Source: Acidobacteriota bacterium (GTDB lineage Bacteria; Acidobacteriota; Thermoanaerobaculia; UBA5066; Gp7-AA6). Taken from it: DNA of 64,000 nucleotides. Below are positions 23,822-44,385 of this stretch, one piece after another. The first letter of the stretch is position 1. The number at the start of each line of letters is the position of its first letter. The stretch covers positions 1-64,000 of the forward strand of contig DAHUXD010000064.1 in NCBI GenBank assembly GCA_027307335.1, given 5' to 3'. Under the pieces are notes generated by a model that had not been told where the DNA came from, did no database searches, and worked only from the letters and a program-made list of their open reading frames with translations. The position numbers were made by a program, and so were the translations under genes.

Positions 23822-24041
23822 TCCGTTTCGAACCTCTCGGTAGCTGATTGACACCCAGCGTTCACCCTTCGCGCGGCAGCTCGATAGGCGAGCTCGCATG
23901 ACGGAAGGAGTTGGCCCTGCAGACGATCACCGTTTCCATCCAGGGAGGTTTGAGCGTTGCCCAAAGCCTACAGCTCGATGCCGCCGCCGCCCTCCCACTA
24001 TTCGTCAATCTGAAGATCGTTCTTCGGGGCGCCCAGGAGCG
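23822..24041 (+). repeat. Duplicated leader-plus-module block, copy A
   Basis: This block aligns without gaps, at an offset of 1,187 bases, to 25,009-25,228. It contains a leader with a 6-bp hairpin (23,878-23,894: AGCTCG-ATAGG-CGAGCT), a purine-rich ribosome site (AAGGAG) and the first ~40 codons of the methyltransferase frame (TITVSIQGG... LPLF... LK.VL). Hairpin arms differ between the copies yet both pair perfectly (TA pair here, CG in copy B). Confidence 0.75.
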
Positions 24042-25002
24042 CCGACCCGACATTTCAGCAAGCCCGCTGCCAAGCGACTTACTGAACAGAGTGATCCATG
24101 GCGACTGCCTGACTGTCATGAAGCGCCTGCCCGATGAATGTGTCGACTGCGTCGTGACAAGCCCTCCTTACTTCGGGCTTCGCGACTACGGAGCAGATGG
24201 ACAGATTGGCCTCGAGGAGACGCCCGACATGTACACCCGGAGGTTGGTTGAACTCTTCCGAGAAGTCAGAAGAGTTCTCAAGACCGAAGGCACCCTGTGG
24301 CTGAACCTTGGCGATAGCTACGCGGCCGGCGGAAACGGTGGGCACGGAAAGAAACAGCAGAGCAACCGTGGGACGCGGGCGATAGCCGGTACGGCGAAGA
24401 AGGCGCCCGCCGGCTTGAAGCCGAAGGATCTCGTCGGCATCCCGTGGCGCGTGGCTTTCGCCCTCCAGGCCGATGGCTGATATCTGCGGCAAGACATCAT
24501 CTGGGTGAAGCCGAACCCCATGCCCGAGTCCGTTACCGATCGCTGCACGAAGAGCCACGAGTATGTCTTCTTGCTTGCGAAGAGCAGGAGCTATTTCTAC
24601 GACAACGACGCGATCCGAGAGCCGCTAAAGGAAGTCTCGATCTTGAGAACGAAATATGGATGGCACGGTAAGGGAGATCATGGCCAAGGAAATTACGCAG
24701 GGTTGCGGCATATGGAAGTGATGGGTGCGCGGTTTGCGAATCCGAAGGGTCGAAATAAGCGCTCCGTCTGGAATGTGAATCCGAAGCCCTTCCGTGGCGC
24801 CCACTTCGCCACTTTTCCCGAGGGTCTCGTCACCCCAATGATTCTGGCCGGGTGCCCAAGAGGTGGGCTCGTTCTCGACCCGTTCATCGGCGCGGGCACG
24901 ACGGCTGTCGCGGCAAGACGGCTCGGGCGAAATTATCTCGGAATCGAGCTGAACCCTGAGTACATCGAGATCGCGGAGCGGCGACTCGCAGCGTCAGCGT
25001 AA
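23911..25002 (+). pseudogene. Beta-class DNA methyltransferase, interrupted by one in-frame TGA
   Basis: A site-specific DNA methyltransferase (adenine-N6 or cytosine-N4). The catalytic motif is TSPPYFGLRDYG; the SAM-binding motif comes late (LDPFIGAGTTAVAARRLG, then NYLGIELNPEYIEIAERR), the beta-class order. A single TGA at 24,478-24,480 splits it where relatives have Trp in the context ADG-W-YLRQDIIW; reading resumes in the same frame with intact motifs. TGG encodes Trp elsewhere in the same frame, so general UGA recoding is unlikely. The first ~45 residues are not methyltransferase but the duplicated module. The alignment with copy B places the start at CTG 23,917; TTG 23,911 is an alternative. 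No restriction enzyme gene is adjacent. It could be a point mutation or a sequencing error. Confidence 0.82.
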
Positions 25003-25340: not shown

Positions 25341-25612
25341 TGACGGCCGCCGTCGGGATCGTCTCATCGCTCCAGGTCGGGGGCGGCGGTGGAGGCGCCG
25401 CCTCGCCCAGAGCGCTCGACTGTCTGGGGCTCCTCCTCGCCCTCGTCGTTCTGCCGATCCTTGCGTATTGCTTTCTCAAGTTTCGAGGCTCTCTCAACCG
25501 CTCTGACAAAGCGAAGCCTGACTTCACGAGCATTCGCTCGATGGGCAAGACCATCGTCAGCGCCCCTCCACCGGATGACGACGACCTGAATCAATTCGGA
25601 GATGTGAATTGA
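25340..25612 (+). CDS. Small single-pass membrane protein
   Basis: A 90-residue protein. A Gly-rich N-terminus (QVGGGGGGAAS) leads into one membrane helix (LGLLLALVVLPILAYCFLKF, residues ~29-49), then a basic/polar cytoplasmic tail ending in acidic DDDDLNQFGD. It is coupled on both sides: TGATG with the gene before and a 4-base overlap with the ATPase after. The position next to a coupling-type ATPase suggests a membrane anchor or partner for it, but no family is recognised. Confidence 0.7.
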   Translation: MTAAVGIVSSLQVGGGGGGAASPRALDCLGLLLALVVLPILAYCFLKFRGSLNRSDKAKPDFTSIRSMGKTIVSAPPPDDDDLNQFGDVN

Positions 25613-27213
25613 ATCTTTCCCGCTCCTTCTTCAGGCTCTTTCGCCGCGAGCACAGCCGCCGCGCGGCGGATGAAGAACGACGGAGCGCCGGCGCGCCCGC
25701 CCGGGCGGCCGAGGCCGTCATCGAGGCAGCTCTGAACAGCCTCGGCGGCTCCTCCGCGATCCCGATCGGCACTACCGACTCGGGCAGAGTCCTCTCGGTC
25801 GATCATTCGACCCTCGTCTCGAGCGGCCTCGTCGTGGGCGCGACCGGAGCCGGAAAAAGCCGGTTTCTGGTTGGACTCATCCTCCAGCTCCTTGAGCGCC
25901 TCGCATCCGGCGTCGAAATCGAGCTCGTCGATCCGAAGTACGAAACTTACGATCTTCTGAGCCTCGCGCTCGCCGCCCTCTGGTTGAAGACGAGCCCCTG
26001 GAAACGGGACGAGCTCTCCTCGCGTATCCGGGTCATCGACTGGGCGCGCGACTGGATCACTCCTTCGGCGCCTTTCGAGCGGGTGAGCGCCGATGTCTCC
26101 GACGCCTACCTCGCGCGCCTCCGTGCCGACGTCGTCGTCCAGGCGAACGCCCGCGACTACACCGATGCCATGCGGCACGGCTACTTCATGCTCGGGCGCC
26201 TTCTCATCGAAAAGCAGTTCCCCATGAACCTGCGCTTCGTAACCAAGCTCTTCCGCGACGAGCCCTTTCGTCGCCGGATCTCCTCAGGGATCGCCGACCC
26301 GGACGTGCGCGAGTACTTTCGCGACCTGGACCGCAATCTCCCCAAGCAGACGAGCGAGGGACTGCTCCGCCGCATCCAGGAGGACTTCTCGTTCCCTGAG
26401 ATCCGGTACTCGGAAGGCATCCCGCCCGCGGCTCTGAGGAAGCTCGTACCAACGGGCGCGCCCGCAATCGTCCTCGGCAACTACAGCTCGCGCATGAGCC
26501 TCCCTCAGTCGAAGGCGATCGAGCGAGCGAACCACAGAATCGTCGACGTACTTCTGAAAGCCCCGCGCCGGAGTCAGCTCCGGCCGGGGCTTCTTCTTCT
26601 TGAAGAGTCCCCGGTGCTCCTCTCGCGCTCCTCAGAATTGATCGACCCCTTGACCACCGCCGCGCGAACTCTGCGCTCCGTCGGCATGGGCATCGTCCAC
26701 CTTGCGCAGGACTTCTCGAATGCGCTGCCCGCAGACCTCGTCCGGACGCTTGTCCTCAATTCCCGGTGGACTGCGATGTTTCGCGTGCGGGAGGACGCGG
26801 AGCTGATCTACCCCCACGTGCTCTGGCTCGACGAGCCGCAGAAAGCCATGCCGGAATCGGTCAAGCGAAAGGTCTTCGCAAAGACGATGGAGGGGCTTCC
26901 CCAGCGCCGCTTCTATTTCCATGCGAAGGGCTACCCCGCTCTCCCGGCTACGTCTCTCGAGGTCCAGGACTTCGCGCAATCTGCCGGCGTCTCGTCGGAT
27001 GACGAGCTGCGGGAGATCTTCAGCCGCGAGATCGCGTCCCGCTGGGTGATCCCGACCTCGCTCGCCGCACGGTTGATCGCCGAGTGGGAAGCCGAGGTCA
27101 TCGATCGAGCGGAAGTTGCGCCCTCCTCTCCAAAGGCAGGAGGGAAACGCCCGCACAAAAGCCTCTCCGACCTCCTGAGAGATCTCGGCAAAGACGAGGA
27201 GGCCCCGGAATGA
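25609..27213 (+). CDS. Type IV coupling protein-like/HerA-FtsK superfamily ATPase
   Basis: A 534-residue P-loop ATPase. Walker A is GATGAGKS (residues 77-84) and Walker B-like LLLLEESP lies near residue 332. After it come an Arg/sensor stretch (AARTLRSVGMGIVHLAQDF) and SRWTAMFRVREDAELI, the pattern of TraD/VirD4-like coupling ATPases and related HerA-type pumps that feed DNA to a conjugation channel. There are no N-terminal membrane helices; the preceding 90-residue membrane protein may supply the anchor. TTG 25,609 has GGAG upstream. The start overlaps the gene before by 4 bases and the stop overlaps the next gene (ATGA). It is probably cytoplasmic and hexameric. Confidence 0.75.
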   Translation: MNLSRSFFRLFRREHSRRAADEERRSAGAPARAAEAVIEAALNSLGGSSAIPIGTTDSGRVLSVDHSTLVSSGLVVGATGAGKSRFLVGLILQLLERLASGVEIELVDPKYETYDLLSLALAALWLKTSPWKRDELSSRIRVIDWARDWITPSAPFERVSADVSDAYLARLRADVVVQANARDYTDAMRHGYFMLGRLLIEKQFPMNLRFVTKLFRDEPFRRRISSGIADPDVREYFRDLDRNLPKQTSEGLLRRIQEDFSFPEIRYSEGIPPAALRKLVPTGAPAIVLGNYSSRMSLPQSKAIERANHRIVDVLLKAPRRSQLRPGLLLLEESPVLLSRSSELIDPLTTAARTLRSVGMGIVHLAQDFSNALPADLVRTLVLNSRWTAMFRVREDAELIYPHVLWLDEPQKAMPESVKRKVFAKTMEGLPQRRFYFHAKGYPALPATSLEVQDFAQSAGVSSDDELREIFSREIASRWVIPTSLAARLIAEWEAEVIDRAEVAPSSPKAGGKRPHKSLSDLLRDLGKDEEAPE

Positions 27214-28355: not shown

Positions 28356-29261
28356 TCACTCGCGGACGTGCCTCTCCAAAATCAAATCGAGAATCCTCTT
28401 CAACTCCACCAACGAGTTCCGGACGATCTCGCCATCGGCCCAAGCACCCTTTCCTCGGTGACTCAGGTTATTCCGCACCTGGTAATAGTAGAGGGCTGCC
28501 TTCGGAGGATTTGCGGGGTCGAGTACGTAGACGTCAGTTGGATCCCGTGAATCACAAACTTGGTCTCGGCGTGTGATGCCTGCCTTCCTGAAGGCCGCTT
28601 GAAATACCTCGTGTTTCCCAAGACTCTTTACTCTCGCCAAGGGACCAAGGCCAGGACCAAGAAGAAGAGCTGTATAGCGTTCAACGGCAGACCACAAGAG
28701 CAGGTAAGCCATCTGCAGCCGGAAGAACCGCGGCCAGTCCGGCCAATCGAAACCAGCGCCGGCTTCGGAAGAGGTCGAACTCTCGACCTCAGGGAGGCCG
28801 TAGCTGAAAACCGGGTCATCGCAGAGTGTCCAGGATGATGTCTCGAGCAGCGCGGCCCGACCCTTCTCTAGCTTCTTTCCGACGAGCACGTTCACCGGGG
28901 CCCGCGGGTCGCGCAGTCTTACGTCATCCTTCCAGAAGTAGTGGTTCCGCGGCTCGAAGGCGCAAATGGTCGCGTAAGCCTGCTCACTCAACTCCGGCCT
29001 AAACGACAGAAGAAATCCATCGATCAATTCCTTCTCCGGCGAATCCAGCTCCAGCAGAGGCAGACCGTCCCGGATCCAAAGCCTGCCGTCGATTGTTGCC
29101 GGCGAGGGAGCCTGTGAGAGAAATCGCTCGACCTGATGGTGCGCCGGTTCCCGTGGCTTCAGCGACCCGTACGCGAAGAACGGCAAGCTCGTGTCTCGAG
29201 GAGGAGGAATGCTTCCGCCCTCGCTCTCGGTACCATCTGAAGGTGGTGGGTCTTTTTTCAT
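28356..29261 (-). CDS. GGCT/AIG2-like domain fused to a HEPN-like domain
   Basis: A 301-residue protein. The N-terminal ~130 residues look like a gamma-glutamylcyclotransferase/AIG2 fold: FFAYGSLKPREPAHH (YGSL at 31-34) and, at ~105-120, CAFEPRNHYFWKDDV with the Glu and aromatic residues of that family. The C-terminal ~130 residues are helical (FFRLQMAYLLLWSAVERYTA) and end in VRNNLSHRGKG (Arg263, His268), the R-x4-H motif of HEPN ribonucleases. HEPN domains act in toxin-antitoxin and anti-phage systems. The fusion is unfamiliar to me. It stands alone on the minus strand, 44 bases downstream of the J-domain gene, with no cognate antitoxin evident. Domain assignments are by motif only. Confidence 0.6.
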   Translation of the reverse strand: MKKDPPPSDGTESEGGSIPPPRDTSLPFFAYGSLKPREPAHHQVERFLSQAPSPATIDGRLWIRDGLPLLELDSPEKELIDGFLLSFRPELSEQAYATICAFEPRNHYFWKDDVRLRDPRAPVNVLVGKKLEKGRAALLETSSWTLCDDPVFSYGLPEVESSTSSEAGAGFDWPDWPRFFRLQMAYLLLWSAVERYTALLLGPGLGPLARVKSLGKHEVFQAAFRKAGITRRDQVCDSRDPTDVYVLDPANPPKAALYYYQVRNNLSHRGKGAWADGEIVRNSLVELKRILDLILERHVRE

Positions 29262-29304: not shown

Positions 29305-30420
29305 TCAGGGAGAAGACCGGCGGCTATGGTCGATACATCGGACGCGACGCCCGCCGGGGAGCTCCCACCAGCCGTCGATGCATCCGCTCCCAACCGTTGC
29401 GCGATGCACAGGCGTCGACCGAAGGCGCCAGGGCTCGTTCACTGAGCTCGCGGATTCACTCTCCCAGACCGCCTGCCATAACCCCCGATTCTGCGGCGTC
29501 TCCCACGTACCCCGAATTCGCTCTGAGGACACGTCGGAAGCGACCAGGGTCATCGAAAACTCTTTTCGCTCACATCTTTTGTTGAGCGCGACGGTCAATT
29601 CCGTCACGGAACCACGAATCGTCGCCCGCCAGATTCTTCTGTCGTGGGTTTCTGTCGAGAACCCTGAAATCTCGTCTCCGCGTTGCTCAAGACGCATGAC
29701 GAACGGCACCCTCGTACCGAACCAATCGAAGCTGCCCCGCCATTTCCCGGAGAGATGAACCGGACGGAGAGATTGGGTCGGCTCCGGTGCGGACGGCGTC
29801 GGCTCTGACGCGACAGGAGTCGGTGTCGGCGTGGGCGGCTCCGGTTCTCGCGTGGGCGTCGGCACGGGGATAGTCGGCGTTTGTTCAGGGGTCACCGGAA
29901 CTGCCGTGGGTTCCTTCTCCCTCTCGACGGCCTCAGCTCGTCCCGGCGGAGAGATGCTCTGCGCCTGCTCAGTCGATGCCCTGTGGCAAGCCACATAGGA
30001 AACGAGAGCCAGAACCACAATGGCGCCCGCGGCAGCTCCGCCGACGAGCACGCCGCGTAAAAAGAACAGGTATCGATAGGCGCCTTGCGCCGAGGGCGGA
30101 GGCGCCGCGGCCTGTGCCCCGGCCGAGCTCGAAAACCCTGACGGGGGAGGAGGCGGTGGAGCACTAGCCCCGGTGGAACTGAAGCCCGAGGTTGCACCGG
30201 CCTTCCGACTCTGACCCAAGTCATAGTCGTAGATCTGCCGGCGGCTGGGATCTCCGAGAACCTGATAAGCGAGATTGATCTCCTTGAACTTCTCCTCGGC
30301 GCCCTTTCTCTTGTTTCGGTCGGGGTGGTACTTCTTCGCGAGCCGGCGATACGAGCGCTTGATCTCGTCCTGGGTCGCCGCTTCGGAGACCTCGAGAGTC
30401 TCGTAGTGAGTGCGGCTCAC
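29305..30420 (-). CDS. Membrane-anchored J-domain (DnaJ-like) protein
   Basis: A 371-residue protein. Residues 1-70 are a J-domain ([23 protein letters not shown] at 32-34, [20 protein letters not shown]) able to recruit Hsp70 and stimulate its ATPase. A Pro/Ser linker and one membrane helix ([20 protein letters not shown], ~128-150) follow, then a Pro/Thr spacer and a ~110-residue beta-rich C-terminal domain ([20 protein letters not shown], then [15 protein letters not shown]) that I do not recognise. The start overlaps the VWA gene stop by 4 bases. The J-domain faces the cytoplasm and the beta domain the other side. Confidence 0.82.
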
Positions 30421-31142
30421 TTCGAGCTCGAGGTCCTCGCCGGCAGAAGCCGAGCCGCGGAGGAGATGGCGACTTCGAGCTCGCTGTCGGCAACCGTCGT
30501 CGCGAGGCCGGAGGCCGTCGCGAGCTTCTTCAAGAAGTCATCGTCGGCGTCATGGGTGCCGATCGCGATGATCGTGATGTCATGCCGCTTCGCCTCCCTG
30601 GCTGCGGCGAGTGCGGAGTCGGCGCTGTCGGGATAGCCGTCGGTCACGAGAACGATCGCGCGGGGGCCTTGCCGGTCTGCGAGCTTTGAGCCGGCTAGGT
30701 TGATCGCGGCGGCCATGTTCGTTGTCGCCTGAAGTCCGACCTCGGAGAGTCCGGAGCGGATCGGGGGAAGGCTCGTCGTCGGATTGGTCCGAACTGAGGC
30801 CCAGCTCGAGAAGTGGACGATGCCGACCGCATAGCCCTTTCCGATCGCGTCCTCGGCAAAGGAAAGACCGCCGTCTTTCGCCTGGCGGAGCTTCGCCTCG
30901 TCCATGCTGGCGGAGATGTCGAGGAGCAGGTACACGGTTGCACGACCGGTAGCCTCGGGCGTTGGAGTGCTTAGTGCCCGCGAAGGCGGGACGGAGCGTT
31001 CGATGGCGGAGCTTCCTCGCGCTTCGCCCGGCGCTGTGAGCAGGCGATCGAGAATGGTTTGAAGTCCTTTCATGGCGGGAAGCATGCGGTCCACCCTGCC
31101 TTTCGAACCCGAGGCCATCGAAATGGCCAAGGGCTCCAGCAA
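30417..31142 (-). CDS. von Willebrand factor A-domain protein
   Basis: A 241-residue VWA protein with a complete MIDAS metal site: DISAS (75-79) after YLLL, Thr in [12 protein letters not shown] (~141), and Asp in [12 protein letters not shown] (168). No signal peptide or membrane helix, so it is cytosolic. It is translationally coupled to the J-domain protein (ATGA). VWA proteins often scaffold chaperone-like AAA+ complexes, and VWA/chaperone pairs occur in bacterial conflict systems; here the partner is a J-protein. The start is uncertain: ATG 31,142, or the internal Met of MKGLQ (~31,073), neither with a strong ribosome site. Confidence 0.8.
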
Positions 31143-35054: not shown

Positions 35055-37445
35055 TTATTGCAGATTGAACGTCTTCGTCAGGAAGACGGCCATCTGTCCC
35101 CGGGTGTTCGGGTTGCTCGGACAGTAGTTCCCACCGCCGCAGCCTCCGGTGATGCCCTCGGCCGCCAGCCGCTCGATCCAGTTCGCGAAGGCGCTGGGGC
35201 ACATCACGTCGAGGAAGACTCCGGTGCATGCGGGTGGGTTGTACGCCGGCCCGTGCTCGGTCTTCAAAAGAAACACGGCCATTTGCGCGCGAGTCACAGG
35301 ATTCGAGGGGCAGTAGTTTCCGCCGCCGCACCCGCCGGTGATGCCTTCGGCTGCGAGGCGCTCGATCCAATTCGCAAAGGCGCTGGGGCAGGTCACGTCC
35401 GCAAAGATCCCCGTGCACATTGGCGGCACGTACGTTGAGCCGTGCTCGGCCTTCAGCAGAAAGACCGCCATCTGAGCGCGGGTCACCGAGGCGTAGCGGC
35501 AGTAGTTGCCGCCGCCGCATCCGGCCGTGATCCCGTTTCTGGCAATCTTGATCACGTAGTCGTGGAACGGGTCCGAGGGTGGCACGTCGAGAAAGTCCAC
35601 CTGAATCGCCAGGATCGCCTCCGGCGAGGCGCAGGAGCCGACCGACTCGACGACACCCGCCTGCATGGTCGTTCCAGGCGAGCCGGCGTCAAACGTGATC
35701 TGGTTCGAGCCCTGCCCAGCCGTGATCGTGCCCCCCGTGAGCGTCCAGGCATAGGTCGAGCCGGTATTGTTCGTGACGCTGGCGAGGTTGCCCATGGAGC
35801 CAACGCCGACCGACTCGGGCGCGACGATGACCGGCAGCACCGGCGAGTCGTTGACGGTGAGCGTGGCGGCCGCCGACGTTACCATCTGGCCAAACCCGTC
35901 GGTCACGACCACGGCGTAGCTGGCCGAGTCGCCGGGGACCGTCGAGGTGATCATGAGTTGTGATGTGGTCGAGCCGGAGATCCTCCCGCCGTCGGACAGA
36001 GGATTCCCTCCGTCGAGCCACTGGTATGTCAGGGTGGGCGCGCCGGTGGCCGTCACACTGAAAACCGCCGTTGCCCCCGCACAGAGGGTCAGGTTCGAGG
36101 GCGCGGTCACGGAGAGAGGAACCCGCTCGTACGCGCCCATGTCGACAATCGGCGGCGTGCCCGCACCGGTATCGGGCACCGCCGGATCGTCGTAGAACCG
36201 CGGAAGGCCGGATATGTCCGTGGTGACCCCGCCCGGGACGGCGCCGTTGTTGCCCGCGTCCACTGCGGGGGACGGAGTGCCCAGACGCAGGTCCGTCGGA
36301 AAGTTCCGAAACAGCGGATCGGCGAAAATGTTGCCGGTACCCGTCAGGGCGTCCTGCGTGTCGCAATACGTCGCTGAGAGACTCGAAAAGCCGTCGTTGA
36401 AGACTCCGGCCACGGCGTTTCCCCAGACGATCGTGTTGGTCATCGTGTTGCTGTTGCTCGCGAGGAGTGACACGCCGTAGGCCTGATTGCCCGCTATCGT
36501 GCAGTTCTCGAGCGTATTACTGTCGGCGATCAGATCGAGACCGTCAGGCGCGTTGCCGGCGATGATCGTATTGACGAGCGTCATGCCCCCGGCGCTCTCG
36601 ACTCCTCCCGAGCCGACCGAGGCGCCGGAGATCTGGTTCGACAGGAAGAAGCAGTCCGTCGCTGTCACCGTACTGCCGCCGCCAGACTTGAACCCGCCGC
36701 CGGCGCCGCCAAAGGCGACGACGTTGGCGACGAAGGTGCAGTGATTCAGTGCCGGAGACCCGCTCGTCACCCGCATGCCCCCGCCTTCGAAGCTGGCGAA
36801 GTTGGCGCTGAAAATGAGGTTGCCGAGGGTCGGCGCCCCTGCGTTGTCCCACATCCCTCCGCCCCGCTCGTTCGGCGACGAGGCGGCATCCGCCTGGCCG
36901 GCCGTGATCGTGAACCCATCGAACACGCCGGTGGCCGTGACGGTGCCGTCCGCCGTGACAACATGGTAGCTGTTGTCCGTCGCTGTGCCAGGTGTCCCGA
37001 TGTCGCCGGAAAGGATCGTCACGTTGACTGTCGGGTTGCGCTGCGAACGCTGCGTCTCTGTGCCATTGAAGCCGCCGTAGACGCCGACGTTGTTCTTGAG
37101 CGCGAAGCTGATCGTCCGATCGGTCGTCGTCGTCGGCTTGTACGTCGCCGCGGCGACCCAGATCTCGTCGCCCGAGCCGGCCGCGGACAGACCCGACTGC
37201 AGACTCGTGAAGGCGTCCATCCAACTCGAGCCGTTGTTGGAGCCGGTGGCGGCGGCGTTGACGTAGATGACCGAGGCGCGCGCAACGCTCCCGAAGACGA
37301 CTGCCAACGCCATAACGCCCAATGACAATCCGGATGGCCGGCAACGCGAGCCTGACCGCGCCAGCCGCAAAAGAAGCCCCCGCACCGACGAACACACAGG
37401 CTCGGCCAGCCGTTTGTAGCACTGGCCACGCAAGACGAGTTGCAT
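35055..37445 (-). CDS. Secreted beta-helix protein with Ig-like and three SLH domains
   Basis: A 796-residue surface protein. ATG 37,445 follows GGAGAAGGC; a signal/anchor segment (LSLGVMALAVVFGSVARASV) ends near residue 60. Residues ~65-390 are a right-handed parallel beta-helix (GGGMWDNAGAPTLGNLIFSA, GGMRVTSGSPALNHCTFVAN). An Ig-like domain follows (LTLCAGATAVFSVTATGAPT). The last ~190 residues are three S-layer-homology repeats, each with the Cys-rich signature ITGGCGGGNYCP or a variant and RAQMAVFLLK. SLH repeats tether proteins to the cell envelope. The SLH triplet matches that inside the neighbouring RHS protein. Confidence 0.85.
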   Translation of the reverse strand: MQLVLRGQCYKRLAEPVCSSVRGLLLRLARSGSRCRPSGLSLGVMALAVVFGSVARASVIYVNAAATGSNNGSSWMDAFTSLQSGLSAAGSGDEIWVAAATYKPTTTTDRTISFALKNNVGVYGGFNGTETQRSQRNPTVNVTILSGDIGTPGTATDNSYHVVTADGTVTATGVFDGFTITAGQADAASSPNERGGGMWDNAGAPTLGNLIFSANFASFEGGGMRVTSGSPALNHCTFVANVVAFGGAGGGFKSGGGSTVTATDCFFLSNQISGASVGSGGVESAGGMTLVNTIIAGNAPDGLDLIADSNTLENCTIAGNQAYGVSLLASNSNTMTNTIVWGNAVAGVFNDGFSSLSATYCDTQDALTGTGNIFADPLFRNFPTDLRLGTPSPAVDAGNNGAVPGGVTTDISGLPRFYDDPAVPDTGAGTPPIVDMGAYERVPLSVTAPSNLTLCAGATAVFSVTATGAPTLTYQWLDGGNPLSDGGRISGSTTSQLMITSTVPGDSASYAVVVTDGFGQMVTSAAATLTVNDSPVLPVIVAPESVGVGSMGNLASVTNNTGSTYAWTLTGGTITAGQGSNQITFDAGSPGTTMQAGVVESVGSCASPEAILAIQVDFLDVPPSDPFHDYVIKIARNGITAGCGGGNYCRYASVTRAQMAVFLLKAEHGSTYVPPMCTGIFADVTCPSAFANWIERLAAEGITGGCGGGNYCPSNPVTRAQMAVFLLKTEHGPAYNPPACTGVFLDVMCPSAFANWIERLAAEGITGGCGGGNYCPSNPNTRGQMAVFLTKTFNLQ

Positions 37446-38282: not shown

Positions 38283-41200
38283 TCAGAAGTTACCCGGGCA
38301 TGGCTGATACCACCCAGGTGCGCGAAGCCTGAAGGTTTGGTCTAGGTGCGTATAGGGGTCGACATAGATGCCACACTTGCTCGCAACACAGCTCGCGAAG
38401 GTATTGCTATTCCTGCCGTTTCCGATGCCCAGATTTGCAAACACGTAGCTATACCGCTCCACAGGATATTGCGCCGAATTGCTTCGCGCGCAGGTCTCGA
38501 GGCGGCCACAAGGATCTGATCGCCATGGTGAACACTGCCCACCTGTATCGGATGGGTCGTTCATTCGGTAGACACCATTGCCATCCTGAATGTGTAGGCC
38601 GAACGTGCGACGTTGGTTGTTGCTGTTCGACTCCAAGTAGCAGTGCTTGTAGCCACTGAGCACCTTAGAGTCAAGAGGACGGCAGCAGACACGAACATCC
38701 AGACCGTAAGGATCGACGAAGCGAACCGGCGTACCCTTAGCGTAGCTGAAGAGGTCTACGTCGGCGTCCAGCCCCACCGGATCCGCCTCTGCATATCTAC
38801 CCCAATTTGGTCGGTACCATCTGAAGATGTTGTACTCACGTTCGGACATGCCGTTGACGGAGTTGGTGGGCTGCTGCTCGACTTCCTGGCCCGGAAGGCG
38901 GAGGACCTGGTGCTGGTCGGCGAGGCCAGAAGGTCGTTTGGTCCAGACTCTTCCGTAGGGTTCGTACTCGACGCGCCAGTAGGTGTTGACGGAGGAATCG
39001 GTTTGCATGATGGGAGCGCCGAGGTGGTCGGTTAAGGTCCAGTGCGTTGTCGAGGTTACGGTATCGACTTCGGCGACGGGGGCGCCGCCCATCCAGACGT
39101 GCTCGTAGGAGATGACAGGGTGGTAGGTGGTGTTCCAGTCGGTCTCGGTGATGATGGAGAGCTCCGGGGAGTAGACGAAGTAGCGTTTGTTGCCGGCGGG
39201 GGTGACGTTGGCGGTAAATCCCCAGGTCTTCGTAAGGAACGTGGCCATCTGGGCACGGGTGACAGGGTTGGTCGGGCAGTAGTTTCCTCCGCCGCATCCT
39301 CCGGTGATACCGCGGCGGGCGATTTCTTCGATATAGGGGGCATGGGGGGCGGTCTTTGGAACGTCCGAGAAGACGCCGACGGCGGGAGGAGGCACGTAGG
39401 TCGAGCCTTCGAGTCCGAAGAGGAGGAAGTTCGCCATGGTCTCGCGGGTGACCGCGGTGGATGGGCAGAACTGCAGGGGGCTCAAAACGCAGGCGTCCAT
39501 GATTCCCTGGTGATAAGCGTCTTCGACCCAGTTGGCGAACTGGCTGGGACAGGCGACGTCCTGGAAGATGCCGGTGCAGTTGGGCGGCGTGTACCCGGAG
39601 CCGTTCTTGGCCTTCAGGAGAAAGACCGACATCTGGTCGCGATGAATAGAGCTCCCGGAACCGAACTGCCCTCCCCCGATTCCAGCCGTGATGCCGCGGG
39701 CCGCGATGATCGTCACATAGGGGTAGAAGGGGTCGGTGTTGGGCTCGTCGGAGAAGTCGACGACGAAGTTGGTTGAGTTGCTCGTCGAGGCGCCGTCGGT
39801 GACCGTGATCGGGGCCAGCGTCCCTGCGGAGGCGATGTCGGACGCGTTGATGGTGGCGTGGATCTGGTTGATGGAGTCGAGCGTCGTCGTGCGAGCTGAG
39901 CCGATCCACTTGACGACGGAGGAGCCGGTGAACTTGGCTCCATAGACGTAGAGGGTGAAGGCGGCGCCGCCTGCGGCTGTCGAGGCGGGGGAAAGCCCGG
40001 TGATCGAGAGGGCGTTGTCACGGGCGATGGTCCGGACACCCCGGGCGTCGTAGTTGTACGCGAATCCGGCTGCCGGATCGACCGAGGATACGGCCAGGAA
40101 GTTGCGGGCGGAGTACAGGAAGGAGTTTGCCGTCGAACCGACCTGGGTCTCATTGCCCGCGGAATCGTACGCCACTGTCCGGGAGCCGATGGGCGACTGC
40201 TCGGTGACCGAGGAGAGCTTCGGGGTGGTTCCAGAATACGTGAAAGTGGCTGACCGCATGGTGCCACCGCTCGAGAGCGAGAGGCTCGTGACGTTGCCCA
40301 TGGAGTCGTAGTTGTAGGAGCCGGTCGACCAGAGGTTGCTGCCGGTTGAGGCGGTCTTCAAGCGGTTCAGGTCGTCGTAGGCCATCGCCGTACGGCTGTA
40401 AGTTGAATCCAGGGCATCCGGGATCGAGGTCACGTTACCGACACCATCGTAGCCGATCGTGTGGTAGTCGGCGAGGGTCACCGAGCCTGCGTCCTTGACG
40501 AGCTTGTTCAAGGTCATTCGGTAGCGCTGGTCGTATTGCATCGTCCGGGTCGTGCCGTTGCCGAACTTCAGCTGGGTGGGCGGGCCGAAGGGAGCGTAGG
40601 TGGTTGCTCCCGCGGTAGGAGAGACATAGGTCGTGGAGCCGGAGGCGGCTGAAAGCGGCCGATCGGCAAAGTCGTAGGTATAGGTGAGGGTCTTCTGGGA
40701 GGGGTAGATGATCGAGGTACGGTTGCCGTTCTGGTCATAGGCGTACTGGGTCTCGAAGGTATTGTCCCAGACGGCCTTGCGCTCGGCCTTGAGCAAGCCG
40801 CGGCGATCGTAGTTGTACTGAGTCGTGCCGGTGGGCTCGGTGACTCTGCCCACCCGTCCGCCGCCGTAACCACCGAGGGTCGTGTTGTCGTAAGCCCAGC
40901 TCACGGTCTCGGTCGCCCGGTTCGAGCGGGTGGAGGTCGACGTCACCACCCGGTTCGCGGCGTCGTAAGTTCGGGTCGTCGTGGCCGCGTTCGCGTCGGT
41001 CACGGTCAGAAGGTTCCCGGCCGGGTCGTAGCTGTAGGTGGTCGTCCCTGTGACGGGGCTGACCTGCTTCTGCATCCTGCGGAAGTCGTCGTAGTTGTAG
41101 GTGGTCTGGTTGGTGTTCGGGTCGGTGACGCTCACCAAGTTGTCGTGGGCGTCGTAGCCGTACGAGGTTGAGGCCGACCCTGCGCCCAGAGTCTGCGAGA

Positions 41201-44048
41201 CGTTCGTCAGGTGGCTTAAGCCGTCGTAGGTATAGGTCGTGTTGGCGGTACTGTGGTTCTCGTCCTTGACCGTCTTTAGGTTGCCGCGCGTGTCGTACGT
41301 GTAGTCGATGTGAGTGTTGCCGGGATCGGTGTGCGTGATTTTCTGAAGTCGGTTGTGGGTGTCGTAGGCGAAGGCATCGGTCTTGGCCGCGGCTGCCCAG
41401 GAGGAACATGAGGAGGCCGGTGACGAACACGTCTGGTAGTCCTCCTGGATCTTGTCGCCGATCGTGTTCAGGGTCAGATGGATCCGCTCCTGCTGCTTGC
41501 CTGTGGCATCGACGCGGATGGTGTCCGTCAGGCGGTTCGTCCCGTCCTCGTACGCGTAGCTCGTCGAGTTCCCGACGGGGAGAGCGATCGAGGTCAGGCG
41601 ATCTCTGGTGTCGTAGGTGTAGGTGGTCGTGTAGGGGCCGGGCTCGTTCGTATCGGCTGACGGCGCGACGGACTGCACTGTCTGGACTCTCCCGCGGACA
41701 TCGGTCCCGGTTACTGTTTGCGCGCCGTTTGGATCGGTCACCGTCCCAGGGGTGCCGTACAGGTCGTACGTATTACTCGCGACGGAGGTGTCGAGGTGCG
41801 TCGTTGCGCTCGTATACACCTGGGTGAGGTTGCGCCGGCCGCCGTCGTTCGTGGCCGCGTTCGCGTTGAAACCGTAGGCGATCTGCTGGTTCGTGGCCGG
41901 CCCTGAGACGTCCGTCAATCGGTGCTTGGGTGCTGTTGCCGGGCTGTCAAAGGTCGAGGTCGTCCCGTAGGTGATGCTCACTAACGAGTTCAGATACCCC
42001 GTGACCTGCGTTGTCAGCGTTGTCTCAGGAGTACCGGAGCTGTTCCAGGCAAAAGTAGTGAACTTGGTCTGCCCGGGAACAACAACCCCCTGCTCGGTCA
42101 ACTTCGTCATGAAGGCCGGCCAAGCTGGCGTGCCCACGGGTGGCGTATAGGCGTACTCGTAGCTCGTCGTCCGCTGCTCGGGCTTGCCGACGGCCTCGAT
42201 CTTCTCGGTCAACATCCCGTTGCCGTCGTAAGTGTACTGGGTCTCGACCTGCTCGCCTTGGGCGGGGTCCCCGTCCTTGCGGTCGATGACGTGGTTCGAA
42301 TAGTCGTAGCTGAAGATCTCGAGGTTCGCGTCCGCTCCGCCGCAGGTGGCGCAGTTGCCCGAGATCTGTGTCGGCAGCCACCGGCCGACGAGGTAGGCGA
42401 GAGCGAAAGTGGTCGTCTGGTTCGTGGAGCCGTCGATCGTGTGAGTCACGGTCCGTTGCGTTGCCGAGTCGTAGGAGACGGACACGTTGCTCTTTGTTCC
42501 GCCCGCCTGCGAGGACGTCAGGCCTCTGTCTGTCCCGGTTCCTGGGGTGTTGTCGTACGTATGGCCCTCGAGCTCGATCGAGGCGTCGTCCTTGATCGAG
42601 GAAAGGAGGCGCTGGGCTCCCAAATGGTCGCTGAGGTACGAATACGTCCTCCAGTTCGTGGACGTGTGGAGCGGATCCTTGGTGGCCGTCATGAGCCCGC
42701 TGCTCAAGGTCAGCTTCCAGGTCTGAGAGTTCGGCAGCGTGATCGTCACCAGGCTCGAGGTATAGGAGATCGTGATGTTCCGCCCCGCCGAGTCGGTGAT
42801 CGTCGTCAACTGACCTGACGAGTACGTTCCCGAAATCGTGTTGCCCCAGCGGTCAACCGTCTTGTTCCAGTGGCCCGTCGTCGTGTCGAAGTGGGTGACC
42901 GTGCCGTTCAAGTCCGTCAGCAGGTACTCCGACCCAGAGGTCGTCACCGTGCCCCGGACCTCACCTGGGTTGATGGCGGACCAGGTCGTAGCCGGCGACA
43001 CCCGCAGGTACTCCTCCTCGTACCCCTCCGCGGTGGTCCGATAGAGCCGGTTCCCGCTCGTTCCAGGCTCAGCTACCAGGATCTGGTTGTACTCATGCGT
43101 CCAGCCCTTGCCAACGGGTTCGCTGATGAGCGTCGGAAACATCGCCGTCGAGCTGTGGTACGTGAGCGTGAACGGCAAAGACATAGGCTCTTGGGCGATC
43201 ACAAAGAGTGGTTGCCTCACCATCACGTCACCGGATCCGACGTTGATCGGCAGCCCTACCGAGGTCCCGCCGCCACCCCCGCACGCACGACGATCGGCAC
43301 AGGTCCCCGTCAACATTTCCGTGTCGGTAGCAGTATTCAACTGAACGAGACTGTTTAGGTATGTGATCGTAGCTGTTACGGATTCGCCGGCGCCATTGCA
43401 CGGGAGATCTACCCCGGTGTCCCAGGAGCCGATTTCGTAATAGATGTAGGCGGCGACGTTGAAACCAGGACCGGTAACAAGTAGATTGTCGGTTTGAGCC
43501 GAAGGCGGCCCGCACGTGATGCCAGGCGGCCAGTCGCCCGTATTTTGGCAATAGTAACTCGGTGCCGTGTAGTCGACCCAGACGCGCGTACCTACCATCC
43601 GCAGAGCCACGGATGGAGTAGCCGGGGGGGCTCCGCTATTGTTTGTGCAGGGGCAGTTCGGGAATCCGACTGTGATTTGGGCATGGCAGTTCGCGGGGTT
43701 TGGAAACTGGAGGCCTTGGCTCCATTGCACGCCTCGTATAGCCACCGGGTCGCACCAGGTCAAGGGGCCGATCGTGTCCGGAAAGCACTGCTGCGGCTCG
43801 TTAGCTCCGCACCCTCCCGACAGTACAGTGCAGTTTGGCGGAAACGGTGGCGGGCAGGTGGATTGACCACTGGCGGCAGCCGCGAAGGCGACGAGAGAAG
43901 CAACGAATGCTAGAAGTACTCGAAGTGGGCTCGGCACTTCTGATGTCGTCGAAGTAACTGTCATCAGGCTGCTTGACATTGGGCCGGGCTGATCTAGCAA
44001 TGCCTGAATCCGCTCAAGATCCCCGACGTTCACCCGTAAATTGCTCAT
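38283..44048 (-). CDS. RHS/YD-repeat polymorphic toxin-like protein with IPT and SLH insertions
   Basis: A 1,921-residue protein. ATG 44,048 follows GAGGTGGGAC; ~45 residues precede a signal segment (PLRVLLAFVASLVAFAAAAS). A DUF6531-like region (NVGSGDVMVRQPLFV) leads into dozens of YD repeats (YDANGNRT-type motifs) that form the RHS cocoon. Between the repeats and the core lie an IPT/TIG domain (~39,730-40,000) and three SLH repeats (~39,215-39,745). The RHS core follows (YNIFRWYRPNWGRYAEADPV, ending DPYGLD, ~38,700-38,880). The last ~135 residues (KHCYLESNS, GLHIQDGNGVYRMN, NSNTFASCVASKCG) form a distinct Cys-rich tip, the usual toxin position; its fold is unknown, possibly papain/NlpC-like. 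Confidence 0.85.
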   Translation of the reverse strand: MSNLRVNVGDLERIQALLDQPGPMSSSLMTVTSTTSEVPSPLRVLLAFVASLVAFAAAASGQSTCPPPFPPNCTVLSGGCGANEPQQCFPDTIGPLTWCDPVAIRGVQWSQGLQFPNPANCHAQITVGFPNCPCTNNSGAPPATPSVALRMVGTRVWVDYTAPSYYCQNTGDWPPGITCGPPSAQTDNLLVTGPGFNVAAYIYYEIGSWDTGVDLPCNGAGESVTATITYLNSLVQLNTATDTEMLTGTCADRRACGGGGGTSVGLPINVGSGDVMVRQPLFVIAQEPMSLPFTLTYHSSTAMFPTLISEPVGKGWTHEYNQILVAEPGTSGNRLYRTTAEGYEEEYLRVSPATTWSAINPGEVRGTVTTSGSEYLLTDLNGTVTHFDTTTGHWNKTVDRWGNTISGTYSSGQLTTITDSAGRNITISYTSSLVTITLPNSQTWKLTLSSGLMTATKDPLHTSTNWRTYSYLSDHLGAQRLLSSIKDDASIELEGHTYDNTPGTGTDRGLTSSQAGGTKSNVSVSYDSATQRTVTHTIDGSTNQTTTFALAYLVGRWLPTQISGNCATCGGADANLEIFSYDYSNHVIDRKDGDPAQGEQVETQYTYDGNGMLTEKIEAVGKPEQRTTSYEYAYTPPVGTPAWPAFMTKLTEQGVVVPGQTKFTTFAWNSSGTPETTLTTQVTGYLNSLVSITYGTTSTFDSPATAPKHRLTDVSGPATNQQIAYGFNANAATNDGGRRNLTQVYTSATTHLDTSVASNTYDLYGTPGTVTDPNGAQTVTGTDVRGRVQTVQSVAPSADTNEPGPYTTTYTYDTRDRLTSIALPVGNSTSYAYEDGTNRLTDTIRVDATGKQQERIHLTLNTIGDKIQEDYQTCSSPASSCSSWAAAAKTDAFAYDTHNRLQKITHTDPGNTHIDYTYDTRGNLKTVKDENHSTANTTYTYDGLSHLTNVSQTLGAGSASTSYGYDAHDNLVSVTDPNTNQTTYNYDDFRRMQKQVSPVTGTTTYSYDPAGNLLTVTDANAATTTRTYDAANRVVTSTSTRSNRATETVSWAYDNTTLGGYGGGRVGRVTEPTGTTQYNYDRRGLLKAERKAVWDNTFETQYAYDQNGNRTSIIYPSQKTLTYTYDFADRPLSAASGSTTYVSPTAGATTYAPFGPPTQLKFGNGTTRTMQYDQRYRMTLNKLVKDAGSVTLADYHTIGYDGVGNVTSIPDALDSTYSRTAMAYDDLNRLKTASTGSNLWSTGSYNYDSMGNVTSLSLSSGGTMRSATFTYSGTTPKLSSVTEQSPIGSRTVAYDSAGNETQVGSTANSFLYSARNFLAVSSVDPAAGFAYNYDARGVRTIARDNALSITGLSPASTAAGGAAFTLYVYGAKFTGSSVVKWIGSARTTTLDSINQIHATINASDIASAGTLAPITVTDGASTSNSTNFVVDFSDEPNTDPFYPYVTIIAARGITAGIGGGQFGSGSSIHRDQMSVFLLKAKNGSGYTPPNCTGIFQDVACPSQFANWVEDAYHQGIMDACVLSPLQFCPSTAVTRETMANFLLFGLEGSTYVPPPAVGVFSDVPKTAPHAPYIEEIARRGITGGCGGGNYCPTNPVTRAQMATFLTKTWGFTANVTPAGNKRYFVYSPELSIITETDWNTTYHPVISYEHVWMGGAPVAEVDTVTSTTHWTLTDHLGAPIMQTDSSVNTYWRVEYEPYGRVWTKRPSGLADQHQVLRLPGQEVEQQPTNSVNGMSEREYNIFRWYRPNWGRYAEADPVGLDADVDLFSYAKGTPVRFVDPYGLDVRVCCRPLDSKVLSGYKHCYLESNSNNQRRTFGLHIQDGNGVYRMNDPSDTGGQCSPWRSDPCGRLETCARSNSAQYPVERYSYVFANLGIGNGRNSNTFASCVASKCGIYVDPYTHLDQTFRLRAPGWYQPCPGNF

Positions 44049-44385
44049 GTCCCACCTCAGCTCTCGAAGCCCTGCGCGATTGCCCAGACCGGGCAACGTC
44101 CGCAGGCCCTCCCACAGATGAAGTGCGTTTCGGGAGGAGAAATTGGGACACAGAGAGGAGCGAAGCTGGCGGTGCGGCGTGCCTGAAGCAGCCCCAAGGG
44201 ATGGGATTCACATCGACTTCAGGCCGCCCGTCTCGGCGTCGGGGATCTTGTGCCAGGGATGTTCTTTGACGGAGTTCGGGCCTTTGCTTGCCTAACGCCG
44301 AAGCGGAGCTCAGGAAAAATCCGCTCGACACTCCCAGCCCCTCCTGAGATAGAGTTGCCTCACTTTTCTCGGGGCGTCGAAGCGA
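44049..44385. other. Divergent promoter region between RHS and ECF sigma genes
   Basis: 337 bases. It contains a 6-bp stem-loop, TTGCCC-AGACC-GGGCAA (44,080-44,096), which would be in the RHS gene leader. No convincing -35/-10 pair was found; the neighbouring ECF factor may read its own non-consensus promoter here. Confidence 0.35.

What the first reader, a model, noticed from the sequence alone, without database searches (positions are those of the whole stretch)
28356..29261. GGCT/AIG2-HEPN fusion: candidate new toxin or anti-phage effector
The N-terminal half shows gamma-glutamylcyclotransferase-like motifs (AYGSL, E....Y.W..V) and the C-terminal half the R-x4-H motif of HEPN RNases in a helical context. 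I know of no described system with this pairing. It sits in an accessory block with VWA/J-domain and zincin genes.
Basis: partly seen in the sequence, partly recalled or inferred. Interest (0 to 1): 0.7.

Follow-up and report, generated by a model that had tools for sequence, protein, structure and literature searches.

The report
Cyclotransferase-HEPN fusion, probable RNA-cutting toxin
A rare, undescribed protein that joins a gamma-glutamyl-cyclotransferase fold to a HEPN-type RNA-cutting fold turns up in distantly related bacteria and archaea, in some hosts with a dedicated partner gene, which makes it a good candidate for a new kind of regulated toxin or anti-phage effector; its activity is untested.

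Summary
Window 28356-29261 (-) encodes 301 aa. The N-half is a GGCT/AIG2 fold (Pfam PF06094 above cut-off; Foldseek probability 1.00 to human GGACT). The C-half is a HEPN fold (Foldseek 0.96 to 1wwp; the plausible top hits are HEPN toxins), with R263-x4-H268 at the end of the penultimate helix and E194 in an earlier long helix, as in HEPN RNases. The pairing is no local accident: 14 further copies lie on haloarchaeal plasmids and in eight bacterial phyla. In the 14 sequences aligned, both sites are invariant. The family is sporadic and often near mobile or defence genes. In four loci from three phyla it is coupled to an undescribed small partner gene, found only in genomes that carry the fusion. 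A related partnerless copy has H changed to N. The window's copy lacks that partner, and its VWA/J-domain neighbourhood is not conserved elsewhere. Best reading: a HEPN endoribonuclease effector of a toxin-antitoxin or abortive-infection module, gated by a GGCT-fold domain. Folds, fusion and linkage are shown (by prediction and comparison); RNase activity, partner function and defence role are inferred. New variant of a known kind.

The parts
28356..29261 (-). GGCT-HEPN fusion ORF, 301 aa
28818..29204 (-). GGCT/AIG2-fold domain, residues about 20-148; YG motif at 31-32, predicted catalytic E103
   Evidence: PF06094 24.1 bits; Foldseek 1v30, 3jud, 1vkb probability 1.00
28359..28817 (-). HEPN-fold domain, residues 149-301; E194-R195, YYYQVR263NNLSH268RGK
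   Evidence: AF2 pLDDT 90.1; Foldseek 1wwp 0.96, 1wty 0.85, 8xeh_D HEPN-MNT 0.75; R-x4-H invariant in 14 aligned sequences
29305..30420 (-). J-domain protein, same strand, 43 nt upstream; link not conserved in other loci
   Evidence: PF00226 4.6e-26
30417..31142 (-). VWA-domain protein, overlaps the J-domain ORF by 4 nt; link not conserved in other loci
   Evidence: PF00092 4.6e-17

Best explanation
It is the effector of a mobile toxin-antitoxin or abortive-infection type module. The C-terminal HEPN domain is a metal-independent endoribonuclease (E194, R263, N265, H268) that would cut host or phage RNA when released. The N-terminal GGCT-fold domain, with its ligand motif (YG..K/RPG) and catalytic-type Glu (E103) kept, holds or triggers the HEPN domain by binding or cyclising a gamma-glutamyl ligand or a gamma-glutamyl mark. 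In some lineages a small coupled partner protein (GGADVII/ELSWL family) restrains it. In the window this partner is missing, and control would be by the GGCT domain alone or by an unrecognised antitoxin. Shown: the ORF, both predicted folds, residue conservation, fusion in distant lineages, partner linkage. Inferred: RNase activity, GGCT activity, restraint by the partner, defence.
For: N-half GGCT. C-half HEPN fold with R-x4-H at the end of helix 252-268 and E194 in helix 176-201, the placement described for HEPN RNases in PMC3710099. Both sites invariant over 14 sequences from bacteria and archaea. Sporadic distribution: 1 of 396 genomes of its own phylum, 1 of 399, 1 of 395 and 3 of 75 in three other taxa. 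On plasmids or near an integrase, transposases, HsdS, HsdM or a defence-type HNH gene. Region of lowered GC in the window. Partner overlapping or adjacent in four loci of three phyla, in both gene orders, and found only in genomes with the fusion. The partnerless relative in G141 has N at the His position.
Against: No sequence-level match to a HEPN family; Foldseek E-values are weak (0.17-0.69 for the HEPN hits in ranks 1-7). Ten copies with an intact motif, the window's included, have no partner in their genome or record. No PADLOC match of the window protein. No background rate for mobile or defence neighbours was measured. The J/VWA run in the window may be the real operon here, with another function.
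Confidence: 0.6

Rival explanations
1. A gamma-glutamyl metabolic enzyme (GGACT-like) carried as cargo; the HEPN-like half serves for dimerisation or RNA binding and does not cut RNA.
For: Catalytic-type Glu invariant and YG motif nearly so; some HEPN domains are non-catalytic (PMC3710099).
Against: YYYQVR.N..HRGK is the most conserved stretch of the protein; sporadic distribution; no conserved metabolic neighbours; it is the only PF06094 protein in its own genome and absent from 100 relatives.
Confidence: 0.15
2. An antitoxin or immunity-type component: the fusion neutralises the small partner or another toxin, for example by removing a gamma-glutamyl mark.
For: Partner adjacency in both orders; GGACT enzymes act on gamma-glutamyl amines (established knowledge).
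Against: A small partner restraining a larger catalytic HEPN effector is the commoner arrangement; ten copies have no partner.
Confidence: 0.1
3. Part of a local VWA/J-domain chaperone-type operon with no toxin role.
For: Same-strand run with a 4-nt overlap and a 43-nt gap.
Against: No other locus shares VWA or J-domain genes within 8 kb.
Confidence: 0.1

Closest known systems
HepT/MntA (HEPN-MNT) type VII toxin-antitoxin
   Same: HEPN RNase fold with R-x4-H; nearest solved structures are of this group (1wwp, 8xeh, 7ae8); in four loci the toxin-like gene is next to a small coupled gene
   Different: Fused to a GGCT domain; the partner matches no Pfam family and is not recognised as a nucleotidyltransferase
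ApeA and other HEPN fusion effectors (PMC3710099)
   Same: N-terminal domain fused to a C-terminal HEPN; some copies near R-M genes
   Different: Different N-terminal fold; no Pfam match to HEPN_Apea and no profile-profile match to a shallow ApeA alignment
GGACT / AIG2-like gamma-glutamylamine cyclotransferases (PF06094)
   Same: Fold, YG motif, catalytic-type Glu
   Different: HEPN half added; mobile and sporadic distribution

Membership tests
GGCT/AIG2-like (PF06094) | Profile match above the curated cut-off | tested here: met
   24.1 against 22.8 bits; only 4 of the 14 aligned members match the profile at E up to 10
GGCT/AIG2-like (PF06094) | GGCT fold | tested here: met
   Foldseek probability 1.00 to 1v30, 3jud, 1vkb
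GGCT/AIG2-like (PF06094) | Catalytic Glu conserved | tested here: met
   E103 invariant in 14 sequences, by eye placed like the Glu of LDDFEG...YMR in a PF06094 protein of a relative (L059); not superposed on GGACT E82
GGCT/AIG2-like (PF06094) | Cyclotransferase activity | not testable with these tools
   needs an assay
HEPN superfamily | R-x4-6-H motif with a polar residue after R | tested here: met
   R263/H268 invariant in 14; N or S follows R
[quoted passage not shown]
   Foldseek 1wwp 0.96, TMt 0.61
HEPN superfamily | Profile match to a known HEPN family | tested here: not met
   No Pfam HEPN hit; hhalign to shallow ApeA and PF05168 alignments not significant. Not decisive: HEPN families are known to be poorly conserved outside the motif (PMC3710099)
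HEPN superfamily | RNase activity | not testable with these tools
   needs an assay
HEPN-MNT toxin-antitoxin | Adjacent nucleotidyltransferase antitoxin | tested here: not met
   Partner has no Pfam match; no such gene next to the fusion in the window
Toxin-antitoxin module | Small coupled antitoxin gene | tested here: inconclusive
   Partner in four other loci but not in the window genome

The most novel reading that the evidence does not exclude
The GGCT domain chemically controls the HEPN RNase by forming or removing a gamma-glutamyl linkage (on the HEPN domain, on the partner, or on a phage or host trigger): a new enzymatic switch for a toxin or defence effector.
Probability: 0.12. Interest if true: 0.8.

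Novelty: new variant of a known kind. Interest (0 to 1): 0.52.

Why it matters
It would add a new regulatory domain to HEPN ribonuclease effectors, tie gamma-glutamyl chemistry to a toxin or defence role, and name a new partner family with it. The plasmid homologues are annotated simply as gamma-glutamylcyclotransferase, so the HEPN half has been overlooked.

Tried and rejected
Chance motif: rejected by invariance in 14 aligned sequences. Frame or annotation artefact: rejected by full-length homologues in bacteria and archaea. VWA/J operon as the conserved system: rejected, not shared. Partner in the window genome: not found even at E up to 10. Phage origin: no hit in phage records or in three scans of viral contigs, nor the partner in viral contigs. 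PDB sequence searches gave nothing or only chance matches. hhalign to shallow HEPN alignments gave nothing. An idea that a neighbour in L007 is SIR2-like had no Pfam support and was dropped. Pyrococcus island PYG1 and ICE papers mention a gamma-glutamylcyclotransferase only as separate cargo.

Full report
Observation. The ORF at 28356-29261 (-) is 301 aa with an ATG start. PF06094 (GGACT, AIG2-like) matches residues 28-116 at 24.1 bits against a cut-off of 22.8; no Pfam family matches the C-half, and no NCBIfam or PADLOC family matches the window protein.

Family. Full-length relatives covering both halves were found on two haloarchaeal plasmids (Haloplanus, Halalkalicoccus) and in 11 genome contigs labelled Omnitrophota, Verrucomicrobia, Thauera, Chthonomonas, Rubrivivax, Kuenenia, Abditibacteria, Scalindua, Brocadia, Bacteroidetes and Acidobacteria (the Kuenenia copy is cut by its contig end). 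One further copy came from a Brocadia-class genome. In the alignment of 14 (A2) the others are 32-47% identical to the window protein; 33 columns are invariant, including G59, E103, W110, E194, R195 and YYYQVR.N..HRGK. The R-x4-H is at one column in all 14; by composition alone one such motif is expected about 0.5 times in a protein like this, so it matters only because it is conserved. The tree mixes phyla: the window groups with Omnitrophota and Verrucomicrobia, and the Kuenenia-bin copy with Thauera (that MAG contig may be misbinned, which was not tested). The family is sporadic: 0 of 100 relatives besides its own genome, 1 of 396 genomes of its phylum (itself), and 3 of 75, 1 of 399 and 1 of 395 in groups chosen around known carriers. 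It is not in phage records or viral contigs. It is the only PF06094 protein in its own genome.

Structure. AF2 of the whole protein from 12 sequences gives pLDDT 87.5 and pTM 0.84. Foldseek finds GGCT folds for the N-half at probability 1.00 (1v30, 3jud, 1vkb, 2qik) and HEPN proteins (1wty 0.87, toxin 7ae8 0.57) as the sensible matches of the C-half. The C-half alone (pLDDT 90.1, pTM 0.86) matches HEPN proteins first: 1wwp 0.96 (TMt 0.61), 1wty 0.85, 8xeh_D 0.75, 8xdj 0.66; E-values are weak, 0.17-0.69. R263-H268 closes helix 252-268, and E194 lies in helix 176-201. This matches the description of HEPN active sites in PMC3710099, which also lists 1wwp as a HEPN structure. Sequence profiles do not reach HEPN families, so membership rests on fold and motif.

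Neighbourhood. In the window, VWA (30417-31142), J-domain (29305-30420) and the fusion run on one strand with a 4-nt overlap and a 43-nt gap. Nearby are a DNA methylase, an FtsK/HerA-like ATPase and a replication-relaxation protein. GC falls from about 0.72 to 0.61 near 22 kb, and the gene's GC3 is 0.66 against 0.88-0.96 for two stretches before that point, so the region looks acquired. Elsewhere the gene sits on plasmids, or near a tyrosine integrase (L013), transposases (L006), HsdS (L005), an HsdM fragment (L014), or an HNH gene resembling CBASS-type and PDC-M68A effectors (L004). No background rate for such neighbours was measured.

Partner. An all-against-all comparison of neighbours shows one recurring gene: 123-168 aa, GGADVII and ELSWL motifs, no Pfam match. 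It lies upstream with a 17-nt overlap in L011 and L012, downstream with overlap in L013, and 12 nt downstream in L005. It was found only in genomes with the fusion: 2 of 75 Brocadia-class genomes, the two whose HEPN motif is intact, and 1 of 395 Bacteroidota, the one with the fusion (fusion). The third Brocadia-class copy (G141, L025 4443-5261) has no partner, and its motif reads IRSITLNRGK, with H changed to N. This is one case and fits a toxin that is tolerated without its restraint only when inactive, but ten other copies with an intact motif, the window's among them, also lack the partner in their genome or record. So the partner is not an obligatory component, or other copies use a different one.

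Mechanism. The most likely reading is a HEPN endoribonuclease effector whose release is controlled by a GGCT-fold domain and, in some hosts, by a small partner. The catalytic-type Glu and binding motif of the GGCT half are kept, so ligand binding or real cyclotransferase chemistry is expected. Activity, target RNA and trigger are unknown.

Known or not. Searches for cyclotransferase plus HEPN in 5.39 million open papers return none, and the HEPN survey PMC3710099 does not mention cyclotransferase. Subscription papers are not covered, so priority cannot be claimed with certainty. The plasmid copies are annotated as gamma-glutamylcyclotransferase only.

Noticed in passing
window 23911-25002 (+): DNA methylase (N6_N4_Mtase) ORF interrupted by one in-frame TGA at 24478-24480; both parts match the family. 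Nonsense mutation, sequencing error or decayed gene.
   Followed up: partly
window about 22000: GC content drops from about 0.72 to 0.61 and stays low to the end of the window: boundary of an acquired region or a contig mis-join.
   Followed up: partly
L011 9580-10005, L012 9568-10005, L005 4464-4967, L013 10800-11168: Undescribed small protein family (GGADVII, ELSWL) tightly linked to the fusion; no Pfam match.
   Followed up: yes
L025 4443-5261 (-): Partnerless relative with degenerate HEPN motif (H to N).
   Followed up: yes
L004 467-2764: Apparent operon of a defence-type HNH gene, a separate GGCT-like ORF (ILGWGSLLWD by eye, no Pfam hit) and the fusion, the last two overlapping by 4 nt (ATGA).
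   Followed up: partly
window 35055-37445 and 38283-44096 (-): Two large ORFs, one RHS-like, share repeats of the type GGCGGGNYC..NPVTRAQMAVFLLKTEHG.
   Followed up: no
window 25609-27213 (+): FtsK/HerA-like ATPase with a PADLOC mad8 match (34.6 bits).
   Followed up: no
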